Shown here piece by piece: positions 46,568 through 56,681 of a DNA stretch of 64,000 nucleotides; positions within the stretch are counted from its first letter, which is position 1; the number at the start of each line of letters is the position of its first letter. The stretch spans positions 1-64,000 of the forward strand of contig NZ_BMRZ01000014.1 in NCBI RefSeq assembly GCF_014648895.1, given 5' to 3'. Source of the DNA: Streptomyces tanashiensis. GTDB taxonomy: Bacteria; Actinomycetota; Actinomycetes; Streptomycetales; Streptomycetaceae. The position numbers and the translations under genes are program-made. The notes below the pieces were generated by a model. It searched no databases. It saw only the letters and a program-made list of their open reading frames with translations, and had not been told where the DNA came from.

Positions 46568-47782
46568 ATGGACTTCGCCTACGACGCGCGCACCGAGGAA
46601 CTGCGCGAGAAGCTCCTCGCCTTCATGGACGAGCACGTCCACCCCGCCGAGACCGTCGCCGAGGAGCAGCGCGCGCTGCTCGCCTCCCCCTGGGACACCC
46701 CGCCGGTCGTGGAGGAGCTCAAGGCCGAGGCCAAGCGGCAGGGCCTGTGGAACCTCTTCCTTCCCGACGCCGAGTACGGTGCCGGGCTGACCAACCTCCA
46801 GTACGCACCGCTCGCCGAGATCACCGGCCGCAGCCCGCAGCTCGCCCCGACCGCGCTCAACTGCGCCGCCCCGGACACCGGGAACATGGAGCTGCTCGCC
46901 CAGTTCGGCGACGAGGCCCAGAAGAAGCAGTGGCTGGAGCCGCTCCTCTCCGGCGAGATCCGCTCGGCCTTCGCGATGACCGAGCCCGAGGTCGCCTCCT
47001 CCGACGCGACCAACATCGAGACGCGGATCCGGCGGGACGGCGACGACTACGTCGTCGACGGCCGCAAGTGGTACATCTCCGGGGCCATGAACCCCGACTG
47101 CAGGATCTTCATCGTCATGGGCAAGACCGACCCCGACGGGCCGGACCTCCGCCGTCAGCAGTCGATGATCCTGGTGCCGCGCGACACCCCCGGCGTGGAG
47201 GTGCGGCGCGCGATGCGGGTCTACGGGTACGAGGACCACTACCACGGCGGCCACGCCGAGGTGATCTTCGACGGGGTCCGGGTCCCGGCGGCGAACATCG
47301 TCGGCGAGGAGGGCGGCGGCTTCGCCATCGCGCAGGCCCGGCTCGGCCCCGGCCGCATCCACCACTGCATGCGGCTCATCGGCATGGCGGAGCGGGCGGT
47401 CGAGCTGATGTGCCGGCGCGCCGTCTCCCGTACCGCCTTCGGCAAGACGCTCGCCCAGCAGGGCGTCGTGCAGAACTGGATCGCCGACGCCCGGGTCACC
47501 ATCGAGCAGCTGCGGCTCCTCGTCCTCAAGACGGCCTGGCTCATGGACACCGTCGGCAACCGGGGCGCGCACACCGAGATCCAGGCCATCAAGATCGCGA
47601 CCCCGCGCGCGGTCGTCGACATCATCGACAAGGCCGTGCAGGCGCACGGGGCGGGCGGAGTCTCGCAGGACACCCCGCTGGCCGAACTGTGGGCGGCGGC
47701 GCGGACGCTGAAGCTGGCGGACGGACCGGACGAGGTGCACCAGAGGTCCCTGGCGCGCCGGGAGCTGAAGAAGTACCTCTGA
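46568..47782 (+). CDS. Acyl-CoA dehydrogenase of the ACAD10/11 type
   Basis: 404 residues, FAD-dependent. Segments: MDFAYDARTEELREKLLAFMDEHVHPAE (start of the N-terminal helical domain), FAMTEPEVASSDATNIETRIRRDGDDYVVDGRKWYISGA (FAD/substrate middle domain), and QARLGPGRIHHCMRLIGMAERA, with AHGAGGVSQDTPLAELWAAARTLKLADGPDEVHQ near the end. In the usual catalytic Glu position of short-chain ACADs this branch has Asp (ADGPDEVH). Partner of the kinase gene upstream, likely using the phosphorylated product. Followed by 4 nt and the end of the large caspase gene on the other strand. Confidence 0.87.
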   Translation: MDFAYDARTEELREKLLAFMDEHVHPAETVAEEQRALLASPWDTPPVVEELKAEAKRQGLWNLFLPDAEYGAGLTNLQYAPLAEITGRSPQLAPTALNCAAPDTGNMELLAQFGDEAQKKQWLEPLLSGEIRSAFAMTEPEVASSDATNIETRIRRDGDDYVVDGRKWYISGAMNPDCRIFIVMGKTDPDGPDLRRQQSMILVPRDTPGVEVRRAMRVYGYEDHYHGGHAEVIFDGVRVPAANIVGEEGGGFAIAQARLGPGRIHHCMRLIGMAERAVELMCRRAVSRTAFGKTLAQQGVVQNWIADARVTIEQLRLLVLKTAWLMDTVGNRGAHTEIQAIKIATPRAVVDIIDKAVQAHGAGGVSQDTPLAELWAAARTLKLADGPDEVHQRSLARRELKKYL

Positions 47783-47786
47783 CGCC

Positions 47787-50700
47787 TCAGGACAGGCGCA
47801 GGCAGAGGATGCCCGTGGCGGTGTGGACGCAGAGCCGTTCGTCGTCGAGCCAGTCCATGCCCAGGATCTCCCCGCCGAGGTGGATCCGGTGCAGGACCTC
47901 CGTGGTGTCGGCGGCGAACAGCGTCAGGCCGCCGTCGGCACCGGCGGTCAGGACCGTCGGGCGGCCGTTCCTGGTCTGCAGCCGGAGGGCGGTGACACGG
48001 ACCCGGTCGGGGCGCGTGACGATGTCCGGCTTCCCCGCGTCCACCTTGAACGAGGCGGGGAACCGGGTGCGGACGGCGAGCTCGCCGTCGCTCGTGACGT
48101 AGCCCAGGACGGGGCCCCGCGGCCACCGGCCCAGGTCGTGGACGACCTCCACCGTCCTCAGGTGCATGGTGAAGCGGACCGTGTCGTCCGGCACCGAGCG
48201 CACCTCCAGGAAGGGCTCGGGCGGCGGCGCTTCGTCGCTGCTCCCGTCGCTCCGGTACCGGTACCCGACGACGACGGCGAAGACCCGGGCGCCGTCCGGC
48301 ACGAGCCGTACCGCACGGACCACGTTCAGTCCGACGTTCACGGCATCCTTCACGCGGCCGTCGGCCGTGTGCAGGGCGAGGTGGTGCTCGCCCTTCTCGT
48401 AGTGGGTGAAACAGGCGACGAACCGGGTGGGCCCGACGCCCGGTACGGGGAAGGCACCGGCCAGTCCTCGCATGGCGGGGAAGGAGACGGGCGGCCCGCT
48501 CGACCAGAACCGCACCCCGACCGCCTGCCGCTTCCGCTGCCTCTTCCTCCTGGCCGGCGGGTCCCGGAGAAGGACCGGGGCACCCGGGTGGGCGTCGACG
48601 ACCGGGCCGTCGTCCCGCGCCTCCATGCGGTCCAGCACGGCGCCGTTCGCGCCGTCCAGGAGACGCGTGCCGTCGGCGTCCCGCACGACGACGACGGGCC
48701 GGCCGGAGCGGTACCCGGCCCGGACGGTCGTCGCGGGATCGTCGGCGGCCTCCCCCTCCTCGGCCGGCGGTTCGAGGTGCCAGCCCTTGGCGGACCAGGC
48801 GTCGGCACCCAGGGAGACCAGCCGGAGCCCGTGGGGCCCCTGGCCGGCCGCGAGGAGGCGGCACACGGGCGCGTCGGTGCGGGTTCTGCCGAGGACGATG
48901 CCGTCGGCACCCCGGGCGGTCACGGCGTACTCCGTCGCCGAGAGGCACATCAGCCCGGCCCCGGACCGGGGACCGCCGGCACCCGGTCCGGACGCCGGTC
49001 CGTCGCCCGGGGCGATCAGCAGGGCGGGGCCGTGGGGGTGCCCCGACCACTCGACGAGGCGGACGGCGTCGGACCGGACGCTGGACCAGGTCCCCACCAG
49101 GGGCCCGGCCAGGGTGAGATGGGTGGCGACGGCGACCGTGTCCCGGTGGAGCGCGAGGGCCTCCACGTCACGGCCGCGCAGGGCGCGGTGCGACGTCCGC
49201 CCGACGGTCAGGGTGCCGGCGGACGCGCCGCCGAGCTCCCAGACCGTGAGGCGGGCCCTGCGCGACCTCTCGGTCCACCGGTGGACCCGGGTCACGGCCA
49301 CACGGAGCCGCCCCTCGTGGTGCGCGACGGCCAGCCGGTCGCCGTCGAAGGCGCGCCACAGGAGCGACCGGCGCGCGCCCGCCCGCAGGGTGAGCGGCAG
49401 GTGTTCGCCCGATGCCGTCATCAGGGTGACCGTGCCCCGCCGGTCGAGCGCGGCGATCAGGCACTCCCCCGCGAGGTCGGTGACCGCGCAGTCCACCGTG
49501 TGGGGCGGCGCGGCCGGGGCGCCGATCAGGTCGCGGCTCTCCACGTCCCAGATCCAGATCCGTTCGGCGGTCCTCAGGGCGGCCCAGGGACGGGTGGGGC
49601 AGCCGTGGACGGCGGCGATCCGGCCCAGGTCGCCGGGGAGTTCGGCGAGGAGTTCACCGCCCTCGGCGTCCCAGGCCCGTACGGGCCCCTCGCGCTCGGC
49701 GGTCACCAGGGCGGGGCGCCCGTGCGCGGCGACGACCGCGGCACCGTCCACGCCGCCGTCGAAGGTGCCGAGGGTGGTGTAGGGCACGGGGGCGAGTTCG
49801 GCCCACTCGGTGTCCCAGGGGAGCTCGGGATACCGGTGCCGCACGGCCGCGGCGAGCTCCACGGCGCCGGACTGGAAGGCGGAGAGGCGCAGTTGGGCGG
49901 CGCGGGTGCCGGGGTCGGTGCTGCTGCGCAGGAGGGCGGCGCAGTGGGCGACGGCGCGGGCGGCGGCCCGGGCGGGCTCGGTCGTGGCCCGGTTCAGGAC
50001 CCGCTGGAGGGCGGAGGTCCCGGCGGTGAGCAGGTACGCGGGGTCGAGGGCGAGGGCGTCGAGCAGCTCCGTACCCTCGGCGTGCTCGGCGAGATGGCGG
50101 CGTACGTACGGGGGCGCGGCGGCCCAGTCCCGGCGGGGCGGGCGGTCCTGGGGGCCGGGAGGGTCGTCGGGTCTGTGTGGAGCCTCGGGCCCTGGAGGGT
50201 CGTCGGGCCCGTGCGGGTGCTCCGGCCCGGGCGGGTCCTCGGGCACCTCCAGGTGCTCCCCGTGTGAGTCCTCGGGCACGTCCAGGTGCTCCCCGTGCGA
50301 GTCCTCCGGCCCGTCCAGGTCCTCCGGGGCCTGTCGGGTGTCCGGGACGAGGGCGGCCAGGGCGTGGGCGACGCGGGTGCGGGTCGTCGGGGCGAGCGTG
50401 GCGCGCAGGGCGTCCGCGTACGCCTGGTGGTAGAGCCGGTAGACGGAGCGCCCGTCGGGGTCGAGTTCCTCGACGAGGTGCTCGCCGACGGCGCCGAGCA
50501 GCCAGGCGATGTCGTCCCAGGCGAAGGCGGTGTCCGGTTCCGCCGCGCAGGCCGTCGCCATCGCGCGCCAGACGTGGTCCGGGGGAAGGCCGGGGCCCTC
50601 GGCGAGGGCGAGGGCGGACAGCAGGGCGAGGCCGCGTGCCGTGTCCGGGCCGAGCTGGTGGCGCAGGACGCGGAGGAAGGTGACGCCGGGGGTCTCCCCG

Positions 50701-52343
50701 ACCTCGGGCACGCGCGCGTGCCAGTCGGGTGCGGTGGTGTCGACGGGCTTGGCGGCGCGGCCCAGGTAGCGGGCGGCGATCCGGGCGGAGAGGAAGCTGC
50801 CGGCGGCCCGGGCGGCGATCTCCCGGGCCACGGTCTCGGCACCGGCGTCGTCGTAGGGGCCACGGCTGCCGGGTCCGTCGGGTGCCTGGAGCAGGCGGCG
50901 GGCGTAGTCGGCGACGTCCTGGCCGCTGCTGTCCCGGAAGGCGTCGAGGTCGAGGACGGCCGGTTCGCCGTCGAACGCGTCCAGGACGTGCGGGCGGGTG
51001 CCGACGAGGAGCCGGACGCAGGGGACGCGGAGCAGCGGGCGGAGCAGTTCCGTCGTGATCCGCCGGGCCTCGGTGTCGTCGCCGTGGGCCTCGCCGGCCT
51101 CGTCGAGGGCGTCGACGATGAGGTGGAGCGGGGTGCGGCGGGCGGCGAGGGCGCCGAGGAGGGCCTGGGGGGTGGTGGCGCTGCTCCCGGCGGCGTCGGC
51201 GACCGCGGTGACGAGGTCTTCGAGGAAGCGGTGCCGGGCGTGGACGGCGGTGGGCGCGGGGGTGTCGGCCGTGCGGGCCGTGGCGCGGAGCAGGAGCTTG
51301 CCGAGGAGGGCGGACTTGCCGACGCCGGGGCCGCCGGTGACGAGGACGCCGCGGCCCCATTCGGGGTCGCCGTGGGCCAGCCAGTGGCCGACGCGGTCGA
51401 GTTCGGCGGTGCGGCCGACGAAGTACGAGCCGTGCCGTCCGGGTGCCGCGTGCTCGAAGCCCTGGCCGCGCGGGGCGAAGTGGTTCTCCAGGTCGGCGCG
51501 GCGGCGCAGGCCCTCGGGGCCGGTGCGGGCGAGCCGGGCCGCCAGTTCGGCGACGTCGCCCTCGTCGTACCGGGCCTCGGGGCGGTAGCCGGTGTTCTCG
51601 AAGGAGAAGAAGGCGTAGCCCTCGGTCTCGACGTGGGCGCGGGCGGTCTGGCGCACGCCCGCGGTCCGGTAGACGTCGTTGACGGTGTCGACGACCTGTT
51701 CCACGGAGAGGTAGCGCTGTTTGTGGGAGACGGAGAGCCGGGCGAGCGCGGTCTCGAGGGCGGCGGCGAAGACCATCGGGGAGGCGGTCTCGCCGGCCCG
51801 CGCGACGGCTATCACCGCGAAGTCGGTGAGGCGTCGGCTGCCGGCGGCGCCCTGCCGGAGGGCGGTGCGCAGCCGTTCGGCGGCGCCGGCGGCGTCGGTG
51901 CCGCCCTGTCCCGCCCAGCAGGTGTCGATGACGAGGAGGACCCGGTCGGCGCCCGATTCGAGGACGTAGCGGGTGAGGTCCTCGGCGGCGAGGGCGGTTC
52001 CGGCGAGACGGTCGGGGTGGCTGTCGGAGCAGAGCAGGTAGTGCCGCCGGTCGGGGCCCGCGAGGCCGTGGCCGGTCCAGTAGACGGCGACGGCGGTGCC
52101 GGTGGGCCGTGTCCGGTAGGCCCAGTCGAGGAGCAGGTCGCGGGTCGCGCCGAGGCCGGTGTCGGCGATCCGCTCGTCGACGCGGTAGCCGAGTCCGCCG
52201 AAGAGCCGGACGGCGGCGCGCAACTCCTCGGCGGCTAGGGGCAGTTCGGGGGCGTGCCGGTAGTCGCCGGTGCCGACGAGGACGAGCCTGCGGTCGAGGT
52301 CGACCCGCTCGTCCGTCCCGTGCGCCCCGCCCGCCCCGTCCAC
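47787..52343 (-). CDS. Caspase-like protease fused to STAND NTPase and beta-propeller-like region
   Basis: 1518 residues. Residues ~18-150 are the caspase p20 domain: VLVGTGDYRHAPELPLAAEELRAAVRLF, AVYWTGHGLAGPDRRHYLLCSD with catalytic His92, and RVLLVIDTCWAGQGG with catalytic Cys142. Residues ~305-600 are a P-loop NTPase: YFVGRTAELDRV, GGPGVGKSALL (337-347), LHLIVDALDEAGE (Walker B, 414-415 DE) and VRLLVGTRPH. A winged-helix-like part follows (LVEELDPDGRSVYRLYHQAYADALR, ~640-660), then a Pro/Asp/His-rich linker (~670-737) with repeats. From ~860 to the end lies a WD-like region of repeated short strands (PVRAWDAEGGELLAELP, IWIWDVESRDL). Such architectures are proposed NLR-like immune or cell-death regulators in actinobacteria. 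Starts at GTG with TATAAC 7 nt upstream (leaderless). No adjacent partner gene is seen. Confidence 0.88.
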   Translation of the reverse strand: MDGAGGAHGTDERVDLDRRLVLVGTGDYRHAPELPLAAEELRAAVRLFGGLGYRVDERIADTGLGATRDLLLDWAYRTRPTGTAVAVYWTGHGLAGPDRRHYLLCSDSHPDRLAGTALAAEDLTRYVLESGADRVLLVIDTCWAGQGGTDAAGAAERLRTALRQGAAGSRRLTDFAVIAVARAGETASPMVFAAALETALARLSVSHKQRYLSVEQVVDTVNDVYRTAGVRQTARAHVETEGYAFFSFENTGYRPEARYDEGDVAELAARLARTGPEGLRRRADLENHFAPRGQGFEHAAPGRHGSYFVGRTAELDRVGHWLAHGDPEWGRGVLVTGGPGVGKSALLGKLLLRATARTADTPAPTAVHARHRFLEDLVTAVADAAGSSATTPQALLGALAARRTPLHLIVDALDEAGEAHGDDTEARRITTELLRPLLRVPCVRLLVGTRPHVLDAFDGEPAVLDLDAFRDSSGQDVADYARRLLQAPDGPGSRGPYDDAGAETVAREIAARAAGSFLSARIAARYLGRAAKPVDTTAPDWHARVPEVGETPGVTFLRVLRHQLGPDTARGLALLSALALAEGPGLPPDHVWRAMATACAAEPDTAFAWDDIAWLLGAVGEHLVEELDPDGRSVYRLYHQAYADALRATLAPTTRTRVAHALAALVPDTRQAPEDLDGPEDSHGEHLDVPEDSHGEHLEVPEDPPGPEHPHGPDDPPGPEAPHRPDDPPGPQDRPPRRDWAAAPPYVRRHLAEHAEGTELLDALALDPAYLLTAGTSALQRVLNRATTEPARAAARAVAHCAALLRSSTDPGTRAAQLRLSAFQSGAVELAAAVRHRYPELPWDTEWAELAPVPYTTLGTFDGGVDGAAVVAAHGRPALVTAEREGPVRAWDAEGGELLAELPGDLGRIAAVHGCPTRPWAALRTAERIWIWDVESRDLIGAPAAPPHTVDCAVTDLAGECLIAALDRRGTVTLMTASGEHLPLTLRAGARRSLLWRAFDGDRLAVAHHEGRLRVAVTRVHRWTERSRRARLTVWELGGASAGTLTVGRTSHRALRGRDVEALALHRDTVAVATHLTLAGPLVGTWSSVRSDAVRLVEWSGHPHGPALLIAPGDGPASGPGAGGPRSGAGLMCLSATEYAVTARGADGIVLGRTRTDAPVCRLLAAGQGPHGLRLVSLGADAWSAKGWHLEPPAEEGEAADDPATTVRAGYRSGRPVVVVRDADGTRLLDGANGAVLDRMEARDDGPVVDAHPGAPVLLRDPPARRKRQRKRQAVGVRFWSSGPPVSFPAMRGLAGAFPVPGVGPTRFVACFTHYEKGEHHLALHTADGRVKDAVNVGLNVVRAVRLVPDGARVFAVVVGYRYRSDGSSDEAPPPEPFLEVRSVPDDTVRFTMHLRTVEVVHDLGRWPRGPVLGYVTSDGELAVRTRFPASFKVDAGKPDIVTRPDRVRVTALRLQTRNGRPTVLTAGADGGLTLFAADTTEVLHRIHLGGEILGMDWLDDERLCVHTATGILCLRLS

Positions 52344-52386
52344 GGGGCCAGTTATACCGGCATCCCGCGCGGGGGTGGGAGGGGTC

Positions 52387-52980
52387 TCAGGGGCGGAGGG
52401 CCCGGAGGAGGAGGTCGGCGAGGTGGCCGGCGACCTCCTCGGGGGTGAGCGGGCCGTCCGGGCGGTACCAGGTGGAGAGGTGGTGCACGGAGCCGAAGTG
52501 GTAGTCGACGACGAGGTCGGCGGGGGTCGCGGTGGAGAACACCCCGGCCCGCTGGCCCTCTTCGATCAGCGCCCGGAAGCGCTCGTGGTAGCGGCGGCGC
52601 TCGGACCGCACCTGCTTGTTCTTCTCGGGGCTCAGGTGGTGCATGGAGCGGAAGAAGATGGCGGCGTCGTCGAGGTTCTCGATGGTGGTGACGACGACGT
52701 CGGCGGCGGCGGCGCGCAGCCGCTCCTCGACGGGCGCGTCGGCGTCCGCGAAGGCGTCGAGCCGCTCCTGCTGGAGGCGCAGGACCCGGGAGTAGACCTC
52801 CTGGAGGAGGTCCTCCTTGGAGCCGAAGTAGTGGTAGAGCGCACCCTTGGTGACCCCGGCGGCCTCGACGATCTCCTGGACGGAGGTGCGGTCGTAGCCC
52901 CGCTCGGCGAAGAGCCGGGTGGCGGCGGCGAGGAGTCGCTGGGGGACGGGTGCGCCGCTCCCGTCCGTCGTCCTGGCCAT
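52387..52980 (-). CDS. TetR-family regulator of the acyl-CoA locus
   Basis: 197 residues. N-terminal HTH (PQRLLAAATRLFAERGYDRTSVQEIVEAAGVTKGALYHYFGSKEDLLQEV), a C-terminal helical domain with FFRSMHHLSPEKNKQVRSERRRYHERFRALIEEG. The sequence resembles the TetR regulators of fatty-acid and steroid use in actinobacteria (KstR/FadR-like); ligand not known. It lies 78 bp downstream of the SDR gene on the same strand, with a 16-bp perfect palindrome upstream. The repeated operators flanking the caspase gene suggest it controls both the SDR gene and the kinase/ACAD operon. Confidence 0.84.
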   Translation of the reverse strand: MARTTDGSGAPVPQRLLAAATRLFAERGYDRTSVQEIVEAAGVTKGALYHYFGSKEDLLQEVYSRVLRLQQERLDAFADADAPVEERLRAAAADVVVTTIENLDDAAIFFRSMHHLSPEKNKQVRSERRRYHERFRALIEEGQRAGVFSTATPADLVVDYHFGSVHHLSTWYRPDGPLTPEEVAGHLADLLLRALRP

Positions 52981-53917: not shown

Positions 53918-54008
53918 GAGAGGCGGAAGACCCGTTCCGCACGCCTCGTTCCCCGGGGCCGTCAGGAGCGCTAGCGTGCGTGCCCATGCCACACCGAGGA
54001 GGTCCCGC

Positions 54009-55256
54009 ATGAGCCTGTCGCGACGGAGTCTGCTGGCCGCCGGAGGCGCCCTCGGGGCGGCGGCGGCCACCACGGCCGCCCCCGCCTCCGCCGCGCCCGG
54101 GGGTCACGGCCATGTGCGGACCGGCTTCGAGCGGCTCGCGGCCGACGGATACGCCCTCCTCGCGGGCGAACGGGTCGGCGTCGTCACCAACCCGACCGGC
54201 ATCACCCTGGACGCGCGCCACATCGTGGACGTGATGCACGCCGACGAGCGGGTGGACCTGGTCGCCGTCTTCGGCCCCGAGCACGGCTTCCGGGGCACCG
54301 CCCAGGCGGGCGGCTCCGAGGGGCGGTACGACGACCCGGCGACCGGGCTGCCCGTCTACGACACGTATCTGAAGAGCGGGCAGCCGCTGGCGGACGCCTT
54401 CACCGCCTCCGGGGTGGACACGGTCGTCTTCGACATCCAGGACGTCGGCGCCCGCTTCTACACGTACATCTGGACGCTGTACGACTGCATGGCGGCCGCC
54501 GCCCTCGCAGGGAAGCGGTTCGTGGTCCTGGACCGGCCGAACCCGGTGACCGGACGGGCCGCGCTCGGTCCCGTCCTGGACCGGGCGTTCGCGACCTTCG
54601 TCGGGCGGGAGCCGATCGCGCAGGCGCACGGCATGACGGTCGCCGAGCTGGCCGGGCTGTTCGACCGCGAGTTCCTGGCCGCGCCCGTCGCCCTGGAGAC
54701 CGTACGGATGACGGGGTGGCGGCGGTCGGACTTCTTCGACGCGACCGGGCTGCCGTGGGTGCCGCCCAGCCCGAACATGCCGACGCCGGACACCGCGCTC
54801 GTGTACTCCGGCACGTGTCTCTTCGAGGGCACCAACCTCTCCGAGGGGCGGGGCACCACGCGCCCCTTCGAACTCCTCGGCGCCGAGGGGATCGACCGGC
54901 GGTGGGCGGAGGCGGCGAACGCCCTCGGCCTGCCCGGGGTCCGGTTCCGCGAGGCGTACTTCGCCCCGACCTTCTCCAAGTTCCAGGGGAAGACGGTCGG
55001 CGGCGTGCAGCTGCACGTCCACGACCGTGCGTCCTTCGACCCGGTACGGACGGGGATCGGGCTCCTGGTCACGGCCCGGAGCTCGTGGTCCGGCTTCGCC
55101 TGGCGGGCGGACCACTGGATCGACAAGCTGACCGGCTCGACCCGGGTGCGGACCCTGATCGACGCGGGCGCGGGCGTGGACGAGGTCGTCGGGGCGTGGG
55201 AGACGGACCTGGCGGCGTTCCGGTCGGTGCGCGAGGAGTATCTGCTGTACCGCTGA
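54009..55256 (+). CDS. Exo-beta-N-acetylmuramidase NamZ-type (DUF1343)
   Basis: 415 residues. Secreted by the Tat system: SRRSLLAAGGALGAAAATTAAPASA has the twin arginine. The DUF1343 body has AGERVGVVTNPTGITLD, VAVFGPEHGFRGTAQAG, VVFDIQDVGARFYTYIWTLYD, VLDRPNPVTG and TNLSEGRGTTRPFELLGA, typical of NamZ, which removes terminal N-acetylmuramic acid from peptidoglycan fragments. Recycling of wall material is its likely role. AGGAGG lies 6 nt before the ATG. Alone on its strand between two opposite genes. Confidence 0.88.
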   Translation: MSLSRRSLLAAGGALGAAAATTAAPASAAPGGHGHVRTGFERLAADGYALLAGERVGVVTNPTGITLDARHIVDVMHADERVDLVAVFGPEHGFRGTAQAGGSEGRYDDPATGLPVYDTYLKSGQPLADAFTASGVDTVVFDIQDVGARFYTYIWTLYDCMAAAALAGKRFVVLDRPNPVTGRAALGPVLDRAFATFVGREPIAQAHGMTVAELAGLFDREFLAAPVALETVRMTGWRRSDFFDATGLPWVPPSPNMPTPDTALVYSGTCLFEGTNLSEGRGTTRPFELLGAEGIDRRWAEAANALGLPGVRFREAYFAPTFSKFQGKTVGGVQLHVHDRASFDPVRTGIGLLVTARSSWSGFAWRADHWIDKLTGSTRVRTLIDAGAGVDEVVGAWETDLAAFRSVREEYLLYR

Positions 55257-55343
55257 CCGGTCTCGCCGGGTGGGGGTTGCCCCCCGTCCGGTACGGGTGC
55301 GGGCGGGATGTCCCCCGGGCGTCCCGCCGACCACGCTTGCCCC

Positions 55344-56681
55344 ATGAACCTCTCCTTACGACGCCGTCGTCTGCCGCTCGTCGGGCTCCTCCTCGCCGCC
55401 TGCCTGGGCTCCCTGGCGCCCGCCGCGGGCGCCGCCACCGCCCCGGCCGGCCCCGATCCCGCGCGCGAACTCGCTCGCTCCGCCCGGCCCCTGACCGATC
55501 TGCGCCCGCTGGACCGGATGATCGGCTCGGCCGAGGTCGTCGGCATCGGCGAGGCCACCCACAGCTCGGCGGACTTCTTCACCGCGAAGCACCGGATCTT
55601 CGAACACCTCGTGGAGTCCCGGGGCTTCACCACCTTCGCCCTGGAGGCCCCCTGGTCCACCGGGCTCCTCGTCGACGAGTGGGTCCGCACCGGCCGGGGC
55701 GACATCCGGGAGATCATGCGGGACGAATTCCAGGAGTCGTACCGCCTCTGGAACACCGAGGAGTACCTCGACCTGTTCCGGTGGATGCGGAGGTACAACC
55801 AGCTCCACCCCGGACACCAGGTCCGCTTCATGGGCAACGACCTCGGCTACGCGGGACCGAACCTCTTCGACGCCGTCACCTCGTACGTCGCCCGGGTCCA
55901 CCCGGCGCTCCTCCCCCGTTTCCGGGAGCTGTACCGGGACTCGCGCCCCACGGGCTCGGTGGAGGCCTGGATGAAGGGCTACATGGAGAAGCCGCGCCCC
56001 GAACGGCAGCGGATGGCCGGCGACGTGAACCGCGCCCTCGCCCTCCTGGAGCGGCAGAGCCCCGGCAAGGGCCCGGGAGCGCGGGAGGCGCACCTGTGGG
56101 CGGTGCAGCACGCGCGCGCGATCGCCCAGTCCGGCACCGAGTACGCCCACGACCTGACGACGCCGGAGGGGGTCGCCGCGGCGATGCTCTACCGCGACCG
56201 CATCATGGCCGAGAACACCGTGTGGTGGCAGCGGGCGACCGGCGACCGGATGGTGCTCTCCGCGCACAACGGGCACGTCGGCTACGAGACGGCGACGCCG
56301 GACCAGTACCCGCGGACCCAGGGCGCGTTCCTGCGGGACGCCCTCGGCCGGGACTACGTGACGGTGGGCGCCTCCTTCGGACAGGGCTCCTTCAACGCGC
56401 ACGACACCACGGCCCCCGGCGAACCGCTCCGGGCCTTCACCGTCGCCCCGCTCGGCCCCGGCAGCAGCGCCGACACCCTGGACCGGGTCGCGTCCGGCCC
56501 GTTCTACCTGGACCTGAGGCGTACGGCTCCGGCGGCGCGCGACTGGCTGGGCGTGCCCCGGCCGACCCGGCACATCGGGACGGCGTTCCCCTGGGAGGGC
56601 GACGTCGCGTCCGTGCGGTACTCCACCGCGTACGACCTCCTGATCCACTTCCCGAGGATCTCGGCGGCACGGCTGCGCTGA
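55344..56681 (+). CDS. Erythromycin esterase-family protein, secreted
   Basis: 445 residues. Signal peptide: basic LRRRRLPLVGLLLAACLGSLAPAAGA. The Ere-type core includes VVGIGEATHSSADFFTAKHRIFEHLVE (catalytic Glu/His region), FALEAPWSTGLLVDEWVRTG, FMGNDLGY and a late NGHVGYETATPDQYPRTQGAFLRDALGRDY. Members hydrolyse macrolides or have unknown esterase roles; a predicted export signal argues against a purely intracellular resistance enzyme. It could also act on another ester. No macrolide gene cluster is nearby. Confidence 0.82.
   Translation: MNLSLRRRRLPLVGLLLAACLGSLAPAAGAATAPAGPDPARELARSARPLTDLRPLDRMIGSAEVVGIGEATHSSADFFTAKHRIFEHLVESRGFTTFALEAPWSTGLLVDEWVRTGRGDIREIMRDEFQESYRLWNTEEYLDLFRWMRRYNQLHPGHQVRFMGNDLGYAGPNLFDAVTSYVARVHPALLPRFRELYRDSRPTGSVEAWMKGYMEKPRPERQRMAGDVNRALALLERQSPGKGPGAREAHLWAVQHARAIAQSGTEYAHDLTTPEGVAAAMLYRDRIMAENTVWWQRATGDRMVLSAHNGHVGYETATPDQYPRTQGAFLRDALGRDYVTVGASFGQGSFNAHDTTAPGEPLRAFTVAPLGPGSSADTLDRVASGPFYLDLRRTAPAARDWLGVPRPTRHIGTAFPWEGDVASVRYSTAYDLLIHFPRISAARLR

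What the first reader, a model, noticed from the sequence alone, without database searches (positions are those of the whole stretch)
47787..52343. Caspase-like protease, STAND NTPase and probable propeller in one 1518-residue protein
The gene has an intact His92 (TGHG) and Cys142 (DTCWAG) pair, Walker A GGPGVGKS and Walker B with DE, and a long C-terminal WD-like region. This layout equals animal and plant NLR/apoptosome logic: sensor, ATP switch, protease effector in one chain. Related actinobacterial proteins have been proposed as conflict or cell-death systems. This one has no dedicated partner gene, so it may be a single-gene abortive-infection or developmental death switch. Protease-dependent activity is inferred.
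Basis: partly seen in the sequence, partly recalled or inferred. Interest (0 to 1): 0.85.

Follow-up and report, generated by a model that had tools for sequence, protein, structure and literature searches.

The report
Single-gene bacterial caspase–NLR-like protease switch
A Streptomyces gene encodes one large protein built like an animal apoptosome fused to its own caspase-like protease; its relatives usually come with a lipase-like partner gene that this lineage has lost, and the gene differs sharply between strains whose neighbouring DNA is nearly the same, as expected of a polymorphic immune gene, although no function has been tested.

Summary
The gene is on the minus strand (47787-52343, 1518 aa), with the stated His92, Cys142, Walker A and Walker B. 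Structure prediction gives a caspase fold (best match the paracaspase MALT1, Z 21.6), a NACHT/STAND core, and a C-terminal helical domain plus two roughly seven-bladed propellers whose top Foldseek match is Apaf-1. This architecture (metacaspase-NACHT-WD40) is already in print. New here: (1) 16 of 20 more distant Streptomyces relatives, and 3 of 4 fetched places in other genera, have an alpha/beta-hydrolase gene beside the caspase-STAND gene. The window's clade (6 of 6 loci) lacks it; on a tree with other genera this is a loss. 'No partner gene' is right but derived. (2) The gene sits at one core site (between TetR and acyl-CoA dehydrogenase), most simply gained once and missing from two nested relatives. 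(3) In one strain pair with 2-10% divergent flanks the gene is 13-39% divergent, and gene and flank trees conflict, so alleles were probably exchanged. I read it as a polymorphic, NLR-like, protease-armed cell-death or anti-phage switch. Mechanism and function are inferred, not shown. New variant of a known kind.

The parts
47787..52343 (-). CDS, 1518 aa caspase-NACHT-helical-double propeller protein
   Evidence: orthologues
52351..52356 (-). conserved TATAAC 6-7 nt before the GTG start: likely -10 box of a leaderless promoter (inferred)
   Evidence: same arrangement in 6 of 6 clade members
51591..52298 (-). caspase-like peptidase domain, aa 16-251
   Evidence: model me7512875ffa1; MALT1 Z 21.6, rmsd 2.5, 202 aligned; NF047832 below cut-off
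52068..52070 (-). catalytic His92 codon
   Evidence: invariant, 26 of 26
51918..51920 (-). catalytic Cys142 codon
   Evidence: invariant, 26 of 26
51429..51590 (-). linker aa 252-305 with a conserved Arg-containing DLxxHFxPRGRG segment (possible autoprocessing site, speculative)
   Evidence: consensus of A1; low pLDDT at 298-306
50904..51428 (-). NACHT/STAND NTPase, aa 306-480
   Evidence: Pfam NACHT over cut-off, best stretch aa 333-475
51312..51335 (-). Walker A GGPGVGKS, aa 337-344
51099..51122 (-). Walker B LIVDALDE, aa 408-415
50334..50903 (-). helical/winged-helix part, aa 481-670, with invariant His639 (RLYH) as likely MHD-type switch residue (inferred)
   Evidence: invariant in A1 and in 28 of 28 rows; strands 623-627, 633-637 and helix 640-648 in the model
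50124..50333 (-). window-specific repeat linker, aa 671-740 (PEDSHGEHL / PPGP units)
   Evidence: tandem repeats 50144-50327; 65 residues more than in the other four orthologues aligned (counted)
49833..50123 (-). helical (HD2/ARM-like) domain, aa 741-837
   Evidence: model maaed71fa609c
48771..49817 (-). beta-propeller 1, aa 843-1191
   Evidence: 7qdr_C Z 22.1 over model 113-452
47790..48728 (-). beta-propeller 2, aa 1206-1518
48162..49208 (-). hypervariable part of the propellers, aa about 1046-1394
52387..52980 (-). flanking core gene: TetR regulator (59 of 60 sampled genomes)
46568..47782 (+). flanking core gene: acyl-CoA dehydrogenase, convergent

Best explanation
It is a single-chain, NLR/apoptosome-like protease switch. 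The two propellers (the most variable part) sense a ligand, presumably an invader or damage signal. ADP/ATP exchange in the NACHT core, gated by the winged-helix His639, opens the protein and lets it oligomerise. Clustering activates the N-terminal caspase-like protease (His92/Cys142), which is predicted to cut after Arg/Lys because acidic residues (Glu40, Asp140) sit where MALT1 has its S1 acids. In more distant relatives the protease is paired with an alpha/beta-hydrolase, probably its target or co-effector. The window lineage has lost that gene, so its protease must act on itself or on a substrate encoded elsewhere. The output is most likely growth arrest or death of the infected cell. Shown: domain anatomy (by sequence and predicted structure), invariant catalytic residues, hydrolase linkage in relatives and its absence here, fixed site, hyperdivergent alleles. 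Inferred: ligand sensing, oligomerisation, cleavage specificity, substrate, and the immune or death role.
For: Fold: caspase domain aligns to MALT1 Z 21.6, AtMCA4 Z 20.1, caspase-11 Z 19.9. The N-terminal model also matches ADP-bound Apaf-1 1z6t, NRC3/NRC4 resistosomes and CED-4 at E 1e-7 to 6e-7. C-terminal model: top Foldseek hit Apaf-1 3shf E 4.7e-16, TMq 0.53 to the apoptosome 5juy; 639 residues aligned to Apaf-1 495-1248, Z 20.8 but rmsd 8.3. H92, C142, K343, D411, E415, H639 invariant in 25 rows. Hydrolase next to the gene in 16 of 20 more distant Streptomyces relatives and 0 of 6 clade loci; also beside the relatives in Embleya, Nonomuraea and Rhodococcus ruber (3 of 4 fetched places; the fourth, R. 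opacus, has another N terminus). From the other side, 24 of 30 hydrolase loci have a caspase-like match within 1500 bp (4 of the 24 are weak, 11 are places already known from the caspase side, 13 are new), and 4 more lie by caspase-STAND genes in the same stretch. No hydrolase match at E 1e-30 in G000 or G004, while 14 of the 15 other genomes with a caspase hit have one. Window clade nested: 8-row clade with two hydrolase-bearing rows, 98/97, 100/99 with other genera added. Variability peaks in the propeller middle: dN/dS 0.52-0.92 against 0.08-0.21 in the four adjacent flank genes. Island of divergence and tree conflict.
Against: No experiment links this family to phage defence or death. Neighbours are ordinary metabolic genes, not a defence island, and cargo at the same site in other strains is not defence-like by reading of the translations (not family-scanned). 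Loss of the hydrolase could mean loss of the original output. Fast change is not confined to the sensor: the caspase domain itself reaches dN/dS 0.67 in pairs with L005. The propeller variation could be relaxed constraint: NG86 dN/dS stays below 1 in all domain comparisons except one 7-codon segment. The clear divergence island is one strain pair (L003/L004); window-L003 and window-L006 show none. Acidic residue 40 is not kept in 5 of 28 family rows, so the Arg/Lys prediction does not extend to every member. The viral-contig scan found no relative, so there is no direct phage link.
Confidence: 0.6

Rival explanations
1. A developmental or stress regulator: a STAND protease that triggers hyphal lysis or processes a host regulator during the Streptomyces life cycle, not an immune sensor.
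For: Present in a filamentous, multicellular bacterium; single gene with its own conserved promoter-like box; ordinary chromosomal neighbours.
Against: Found in only 3 of 219 sampled genus genomes at 68% identity or more and missing from two genomes nested among carriers, which does not fit an essential developmental role; sensor hypervariability and allele exchange.
Confidence: 0.17
2. A bacterial allorecognition (het-like) gene: divergent alleles at one locus let strains tell kin from non-kin, for example on fusion, conjugation or contact, and kill incompatible partners.
For: One fixed locus with strongly divergent alleles on near-identical flanks and signs of allele exchange; fungal hetero-incompatibility uses NACHT proteins with variable regions (passage of PMC7159879).
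Against: Only six loci examined; phage-driven diversification would look the same; no mating or contact data.
Confidence: 0.1
3. A decaying orphan: after loss of the hydrolase the gene is a non-functional remnant drifting under relaxed constraint.
For: Hydrolase absent here and present in relatives; raised dN/dS compared with the adjacent core genes, also in the caspase domain; two nested genomes lack the gene; lineage-specific repeat linker.
Against: Open frame in 6 of 6 clade loci; His, Cys, Walker A and B intact in 6 of 6; the N-terminal half and the first and last propeller parts are more conserved than the middle, less so in L005; conserved promoter-like box 6 of 6.
Confidence: 0.08

Closest known systems
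Metacaspase-NACHT-WD40 proteins (Asplund-Samuelsson et al. 2012, PMC3501461; passages read)
   Same: Same order of domains in one chain; described there as widely distributed, with NACHT in 15 metacaspase sequences from groups that include Actinobacteria.
   Different: PF00656 and WD40 models do not pick this gene up. The hydrolase pairing and its loss, and the allele island, were not in the passages that I read.
EACC1-caspase two-gene conflict system (Kaur et al. 2020, PMC7159879; section 33 read)
   Same: N-terminal caspase similar to the NCBIfam EACC1-associated type (E 7.9e-19), C-terminal variable domains including STAND NTPases, prevalent in actinobacteria.
   Different: The 5' gene is a TetR, not EACC1; score below the NCBIfam cut-off.
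Caspase plus alpha/beta-hydrolase pairing in VMAP ternary systems (PMC7159879; passages read)
   Same: There a caspase is stated to be always accompanied by a neighbouring alpha/beta-hydrolase gene; the window's more distant relatives mostly show such a pairing. Whether the two hydrolase families are the same was not tested.
   Different: Here the caspase is fused to NACHT and propellers; the window clade has no hydrolase.
Apaf-1 apoptosome and NLRs
   Same: STAND core, helical domain and two propellers in the same order; top fold match of the C-terminal model.
   Different: Carries its own caspase-fold protease at the N terminus instead of a CARD that recruits one (CARD recalled); sequence identity about 11%.
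Bacterial NACHT anti-phage proteins (bNACHT25, PMC12169576; passages read)
   Same: Tripartite effector-NACHT-sensor layout.
   Different: bNACHT25 has a DNase effector; the word caspase does not occur in that paper's main text; no phage test is known to me for the window protein.

Membership tests
Caspase-fold cysteine peptidase (clan CD / C14) | caspase fold | tested here: met
   MALT1 Z 21.6, rmsd 2.5, 202 aligned; metacaspase-4 and caspases Z about 19-20; predicted model, not solved
Caspase-fold cysteine peptidase (clan CD / C14) | His-Cys catalytic dyad | tested here: met
   H92 and C142 in 26 of 26 aligned members
Caspase-fold cysteine peptidase (clan CD / C14) | Pfam PF00656 match over cut-off | tested here: not met
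   own-genome search finds two other loci, not this gene; no PF00656 hit at E up to 1
Caspase-fold cysteine peptidase (clan CD / C14) | proteolytic activity | not testable with these tools
   needs biochemistry
STAND NTPase, NACHT clade | NACHT profile over cut-off with Walker A/B | tested here: met
   34.7 bits against 26.7; K343, D411, E415 invariant
STAND NTPase, NACHT clade | C-terminal superstructure-forming sensor | tested here: met
   helical domain and two propellers predicted, pLDDT 79, pTM 0.78
Metacaspase-NACHT-WD40 architecture | all three domains in one chain in this order | tested here: met
   propellers by structure only, no WD40 model passes its cut-off
EACC1-caspase two-gene system | EACC1 gene directly 5' of the caspase gene | tested here: not met
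   5' gene is a TetR regulator, in the same place in 4 of 4 named orthologue loci
EACC1-caspase two-gene system | NF047832 caspase model over its cut-off | tested here: not met
   68 bits against 140
Hydrolase + caspase-STAND pair (as seen in relatives here) | adjacent alpha/beta-hydrolase gene | tested here: not met
   0 of 6 clade loci, none at E 1e-30 in G000 (11 of 131 first-look candidates scored); 16 of 20 more distant relatives have it
Anti-phage NLR-like system | protects against phage, dependent on effector and NTPase | not testable with these tools
   no infection data

The most novel reading that the evidence does not exclude
A bacterial counterpart of polymorphic plant/fungal NLR loci: one fixed chromosomal site holds deeply divergent alleles of an apoptosome-like protease, moved between strains by recombination through the conserved flanks and so maintained for recognition diversity. 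In this lineage the receptor has dispensed with the lipase-like executor of its relatives, so that a single chain is sensor, switch and executioner.
Probability: 0.3. Interest if true: 0.8.

Novelty: new variant of a known kind. Interest (0 to 1): 0.55.

Why it matters
Caspase-NACHT-propeller proteins have been listed in bacteria for years, and the passages I read report no tested one. This case offers a tractable single gene with a natural set of alleles on near-isogenic flanks, natural gene-less strains, a defined active site, and relatives that keep a probable partner (the hydrolase). If the alleles decide which phages or partners trigger killing, it would be a direct bacterial test bed for how NLR recognition diversity evolves and for what the original caspase substrate of such systems is.

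Tried and rejected
Rejected: plus-strand reading of the coordinates (stops). Defence-island idea: neighbours are metabolic and regulatory genes, and other cargo at the same site looks like secreted peptidases, regulators and a transposase (by eye from translations, not family-scanned). EACC1 membership: not met. Phage or prophage origin: a scan of viral contigs with alignment A1 found no relative (patterns from two motifs only). Plasmids: 8 of 72,556 plasmid records have partial, remote matches under 60% identity. Gene tree with L003+L004 together, as in the flank tree: rejected by AU test, p 1.2e-5 (the group was named after seeing both trees). Hydrolase absence as the primitive state: unlikely, because relatives in three other genera also have it; this rests on placing the root among those. 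A face-by-face map of variable propeller residues was not made because I had no model coordinates in the scripts; only strand/loop averages were made (loops less conserved than strands in both propellers). The paper searches did not list a paper on this gene or on hydrolase loss; they cover only the held library, and I looked into seven of the listed papers. (Caulobacter LypABC, passages read) shows a CARD-NLR-like system whose peptidase domains and ATPase are involved in host cell lysis: an analogy, not a relative.

Limits: dN/dS and dS are NG86 counts at 70-77% GC and are rough; the hypervariable propeller alignment inflates both. The species tree is approximated by three flanking genes with an unsettled bootstrap. 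Genome-wide searches score only the best first-look candidates (7 per genome, 11), so remote matches can be missed. Domain boundaries come from models. The whole genomes of L003, L004 and L006 were not searched for the hydrolase. L138 is not in alignment A1 or its trees; L124, L127, L141 (long branches) and L175 were left out of the tree.
Full report
What is there. The stretch 47787-52343 holds one gene on the minus strand (GTG start at 52343; 1518 aa). The nucleotide signature is that of a coding frame, and four named Streptomyces records carry orthologues at 54-76% identity over nearly the whole length. In all six loci of this clade (window, L003-L006, L120) TATAAC stands 6-7 nt before a GTG start, which would give a leaderless transcript; this is inference, not a mapped start.

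Anatomy. Pfam NACHT passes its cut-off (34.7 against 26.7 bits). The caspase part matches NCBIfam caspase_w_EACC1 at E 7.9e-19, below that model's cut-off, and Pfam PF00656 does not match. The model of residues 1-860 (25 family rows; pLDDT 82, pTM 0.65) aligns over residues 13-251 to MALT1 with Z 21.6 and rmsd 2.5, to Arabidopsis metacaspase 4 with Z 20.1, and to caspases with Z about 19-20. The STAND part gives Foldseek matches to ADP-bound Apaf-1, NRC3/NRC4 resistosomes and CED-4. The model of residues 741-1518 (7 rows; pLDDT 79, pTM 0.78) is a helical domain followed by 29 and 26 strands of three or more residues, which I read as two propellers of about seven blades. Its top Foldseek hit is full-length Apaf-1 (E 4.7e-16). 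VIA-align pairs 639 residues with Apaf-1 495-1248, Z 20.8, but with rmsd 8.3, so the order of domains agrees while their arrangement does not. Single propellers such as that of the SKI complex score slightly higher (Z 22.1) over the first propeller alone.

Catalytic residues across the family. In 26 aligned Streptomyces members His and Cys never vary, and the P-loop is intact in 25; the exception is a broken frame. In the 25-row alignment H92, C142, K343, D411, E415 and H639 are invariant, and they are kept in three members from other genera. H639 sits between a strand and a helix in the predicted winged-helix part, where NLRs have their MHD-type histidine (position recalled, not from a call). 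D140 lies two residues before the catalytic Cys, as in MALT1, and E40 aligns with the Asp of MALT1's 'PLVD' segment. In MALT1 these two Asp form part of the S1 pocket for Arg (recalled). Hence the prediction of basic P1 specificity. D140 is kept in 28 of 28 rows, an acid at 40 in 23 of 28.

Where the gene sits. The upstream TetR gene is present in 59 of 60 sampled genus genomes. In 55 of 59 fetched loci the acyl-CoA dehydrogenase gene is its convergent neighbour. 29 of these have a gap of 270 bp or less, 24 carry some other short stretch (388-3813 bp), and only 2 carry the caspase-STAND gene; the remaining 4 of 59 show no dehydrogenase in the fetched stretch. The carriers (those 2, plus the window and three named loci; the fourth named locus, L005, is one of the 2) fall in one 8-row clade of the flank tree (99/96) together with two non-carriers, L050 (71 bp gap) and L051 (388 bp gap). 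This needs three changes: most simply one gain and two losses. At 68% identity or more the gene occurs in 3 of 219 genus genomes including its own; 18 of 219 have some relative at E 1e-40. Of 39 genomes outside the genus (order to class) none has a match at E 1e-100.

A partner gene that this lineage has lost. Reading the neighbours of 20 more distant Streptomyces relatives (26-45% identical over the N-terminal part for the 19 that are in alignment A1) shows a gene of about 300 aa beside 16 of them. It is upstream on the same strand in 12 (in L126 and L135 with a 4-nt overlap), downstream in 3 and divergent in 1. It is an alpha/beta-hydrolase: an [AG]HSLG motif with invariant Ser177, and invariant D241 and H272, with Pfam PGAP1/Abhydrolase matches below cut-off. 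Those without it are L124, L127, L131 and L141; L127 has a different lipase-like gene 19 bp downstream (LCAT-like by eye). Starting from the hydrolase, 24 of the 30 loci returned have a caspase-like match within 1500 bp. 11 of these are places already known from the caspase side and 13 are new; 4 matches are weak (L146, L168-L170). Four more (L147, L161, L163, L165) are the hydrolases of L130, L133, L137 and L123; L167 and L171 have none. The window clade has none in 6 of 6 loci. A genome-wide search finds none at E 1e-30 in G000 or G004, and only two weak, distant ones in G041; 14 of the 15 other genomes with a caspase hit have a hydrolase match. On the tree the clade is nested with two hydrolase-bearing rows (8-row clade 98/97; midpoint root). 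Because that root is arbitrary, I added relatives on plasmid records of other genera: Embleya, Nonomuraea and Rhodococcus ruber each have the hydrolase just upstream; the fourth place fetched (R. opacus, matching the NACHT part only) does not. With those rows the 8-row clade has 100/99, and a root among the other genera makes the absence a loss. The 'no partner' remark is therefore true and a derived state. Kaur et al. (PMC7159879, passage) state that caspases of VMAP systems always have an alpha/beta-hydrolase neighbour; such pairing is thus known in another setting.

Sensor variability and allele exchange. Among orthologues the N-terminal half and the last propeller part are the more conserved, while residues about 1046-1394 are hypervariable. 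Whole-gene dN/dS against the window is 0.41-0.61, and 0.08-0.21 for the four adjacent core genes. Two more outlying genes (g41, g42) reach 0.31-0.41, and the caspase domain reaches 0.67 in pairs with L005, so a raised ratio alone is neither special nor confined to the sensor. More telling, L003 and L004 differ by 2-10% in the 32 flank bins of 500 bp (dS 0.080 in four core genes) but by 13-39% in the nine bins of the gene (dS 0.37-0.58). L003-L005 and L004-L005 show a similar step, less cleanly, because some far flank bins reach 15-18%. Window-L004 shows it only in the propellers (up to 36%). The window-L003, window-L006 and L003-L006 pairs show no such step in the N-terminal half. The gene tree pairs L003 with L006 and L004 with L005 and rejects L003+L004 (AU p 1.2e-5), whereas the flank tree joins L003 with L004 (100/98). 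Replacement of the gene by recombination through the flanks explains this best. The window gene also has its own tandem-repeat linker (50144-50327), 65 residues longer than in the other four orthologues aligned.

How it most likely works. Ligand on the propellers, nucleotide exchange, oligomerisation, protease activation by proximity, and then cutting of a target, with death or arrest as output. Steps after the anatomy are inferred from Apaf-1/NLR knowledge. In relatives the hydrolase is the likely target or co-effector; in this lineage the substrate is unknown. An immune role is favoured over a developmental one by the patchy distribution, the losses, the variable sensor and the allele exchange, but no infection data exist.

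Known versus new. The architecture is described as widely distributed metacaspase-NACHT-WD40 (PMC3501461, passages), and conflict or cell-death roles have been proposed for related actinobacterial systems (PMC7159879, section 33 and passages; PMC8195603, passages). I saw no description of the hydrolase loss or of the allele island in the listings or in the passages read; one search returned none. Verdict: new variant of a known kind, interest 0.55.

Noticed in passing
L129:4359-5252, L126:5295-6140, L135:8276-9136 and 8 further rows of alignment A3: A ~300 aa alpha/beta-hydrolase family (Ser177, D241, H272 invariant in 11 rows) linked to caspase-NACHT genes across Streptomyces and other actinobacteria; two members gave only sub-cut-off generic Pfam matches and one no NCBIfam match.
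   Followed up: partly
G000:C8:261784-262488 (L001) and G000:C3:551899-552576 (L002): Two other PF00656 caspase-like genes in the same genome, in frames of 350 and 1785 aa.
   Followed up: no
L115/L138 (G119), L117/L140 (G111): Relatives with internal TGA stops reported in the match (2 and 1): possibly broken copies of the hydrolase-linked caspase-STAND gene, or assembly errors.
   Followed up: no
L127:9693-11018: A relative without the usual hydrolase has a different, LCAT-like (by eye) lipase gene 19 bp downstream, suggesting that lipase-type partners can be exchanged.
   Followed up: no
L175:4053-8138 (Rhodococcus opacus plasmid): A protein related by its NACHT part has, by eye, a trypsin-like N terminus instead of the caspase and no hydrolase beside it: the protease part seems to be swapped on the same switch.
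   Followed up: no
TetR-acyl-CoA dehydrogenase interval, e.g. L057, L058, L060, L062: The same convergent interval holds other lineage-specific cargo, often a secreted M28-type aminopeptidase by eye: a permissive small-insert site next to a core gene pair.
   Followed up: partly
window 53937-55253 and 55308-56678: NamZ-type exo-beta-N-acetylmuramidase and an erythromycin-esterase-family protein side by side.
   Followed up: no
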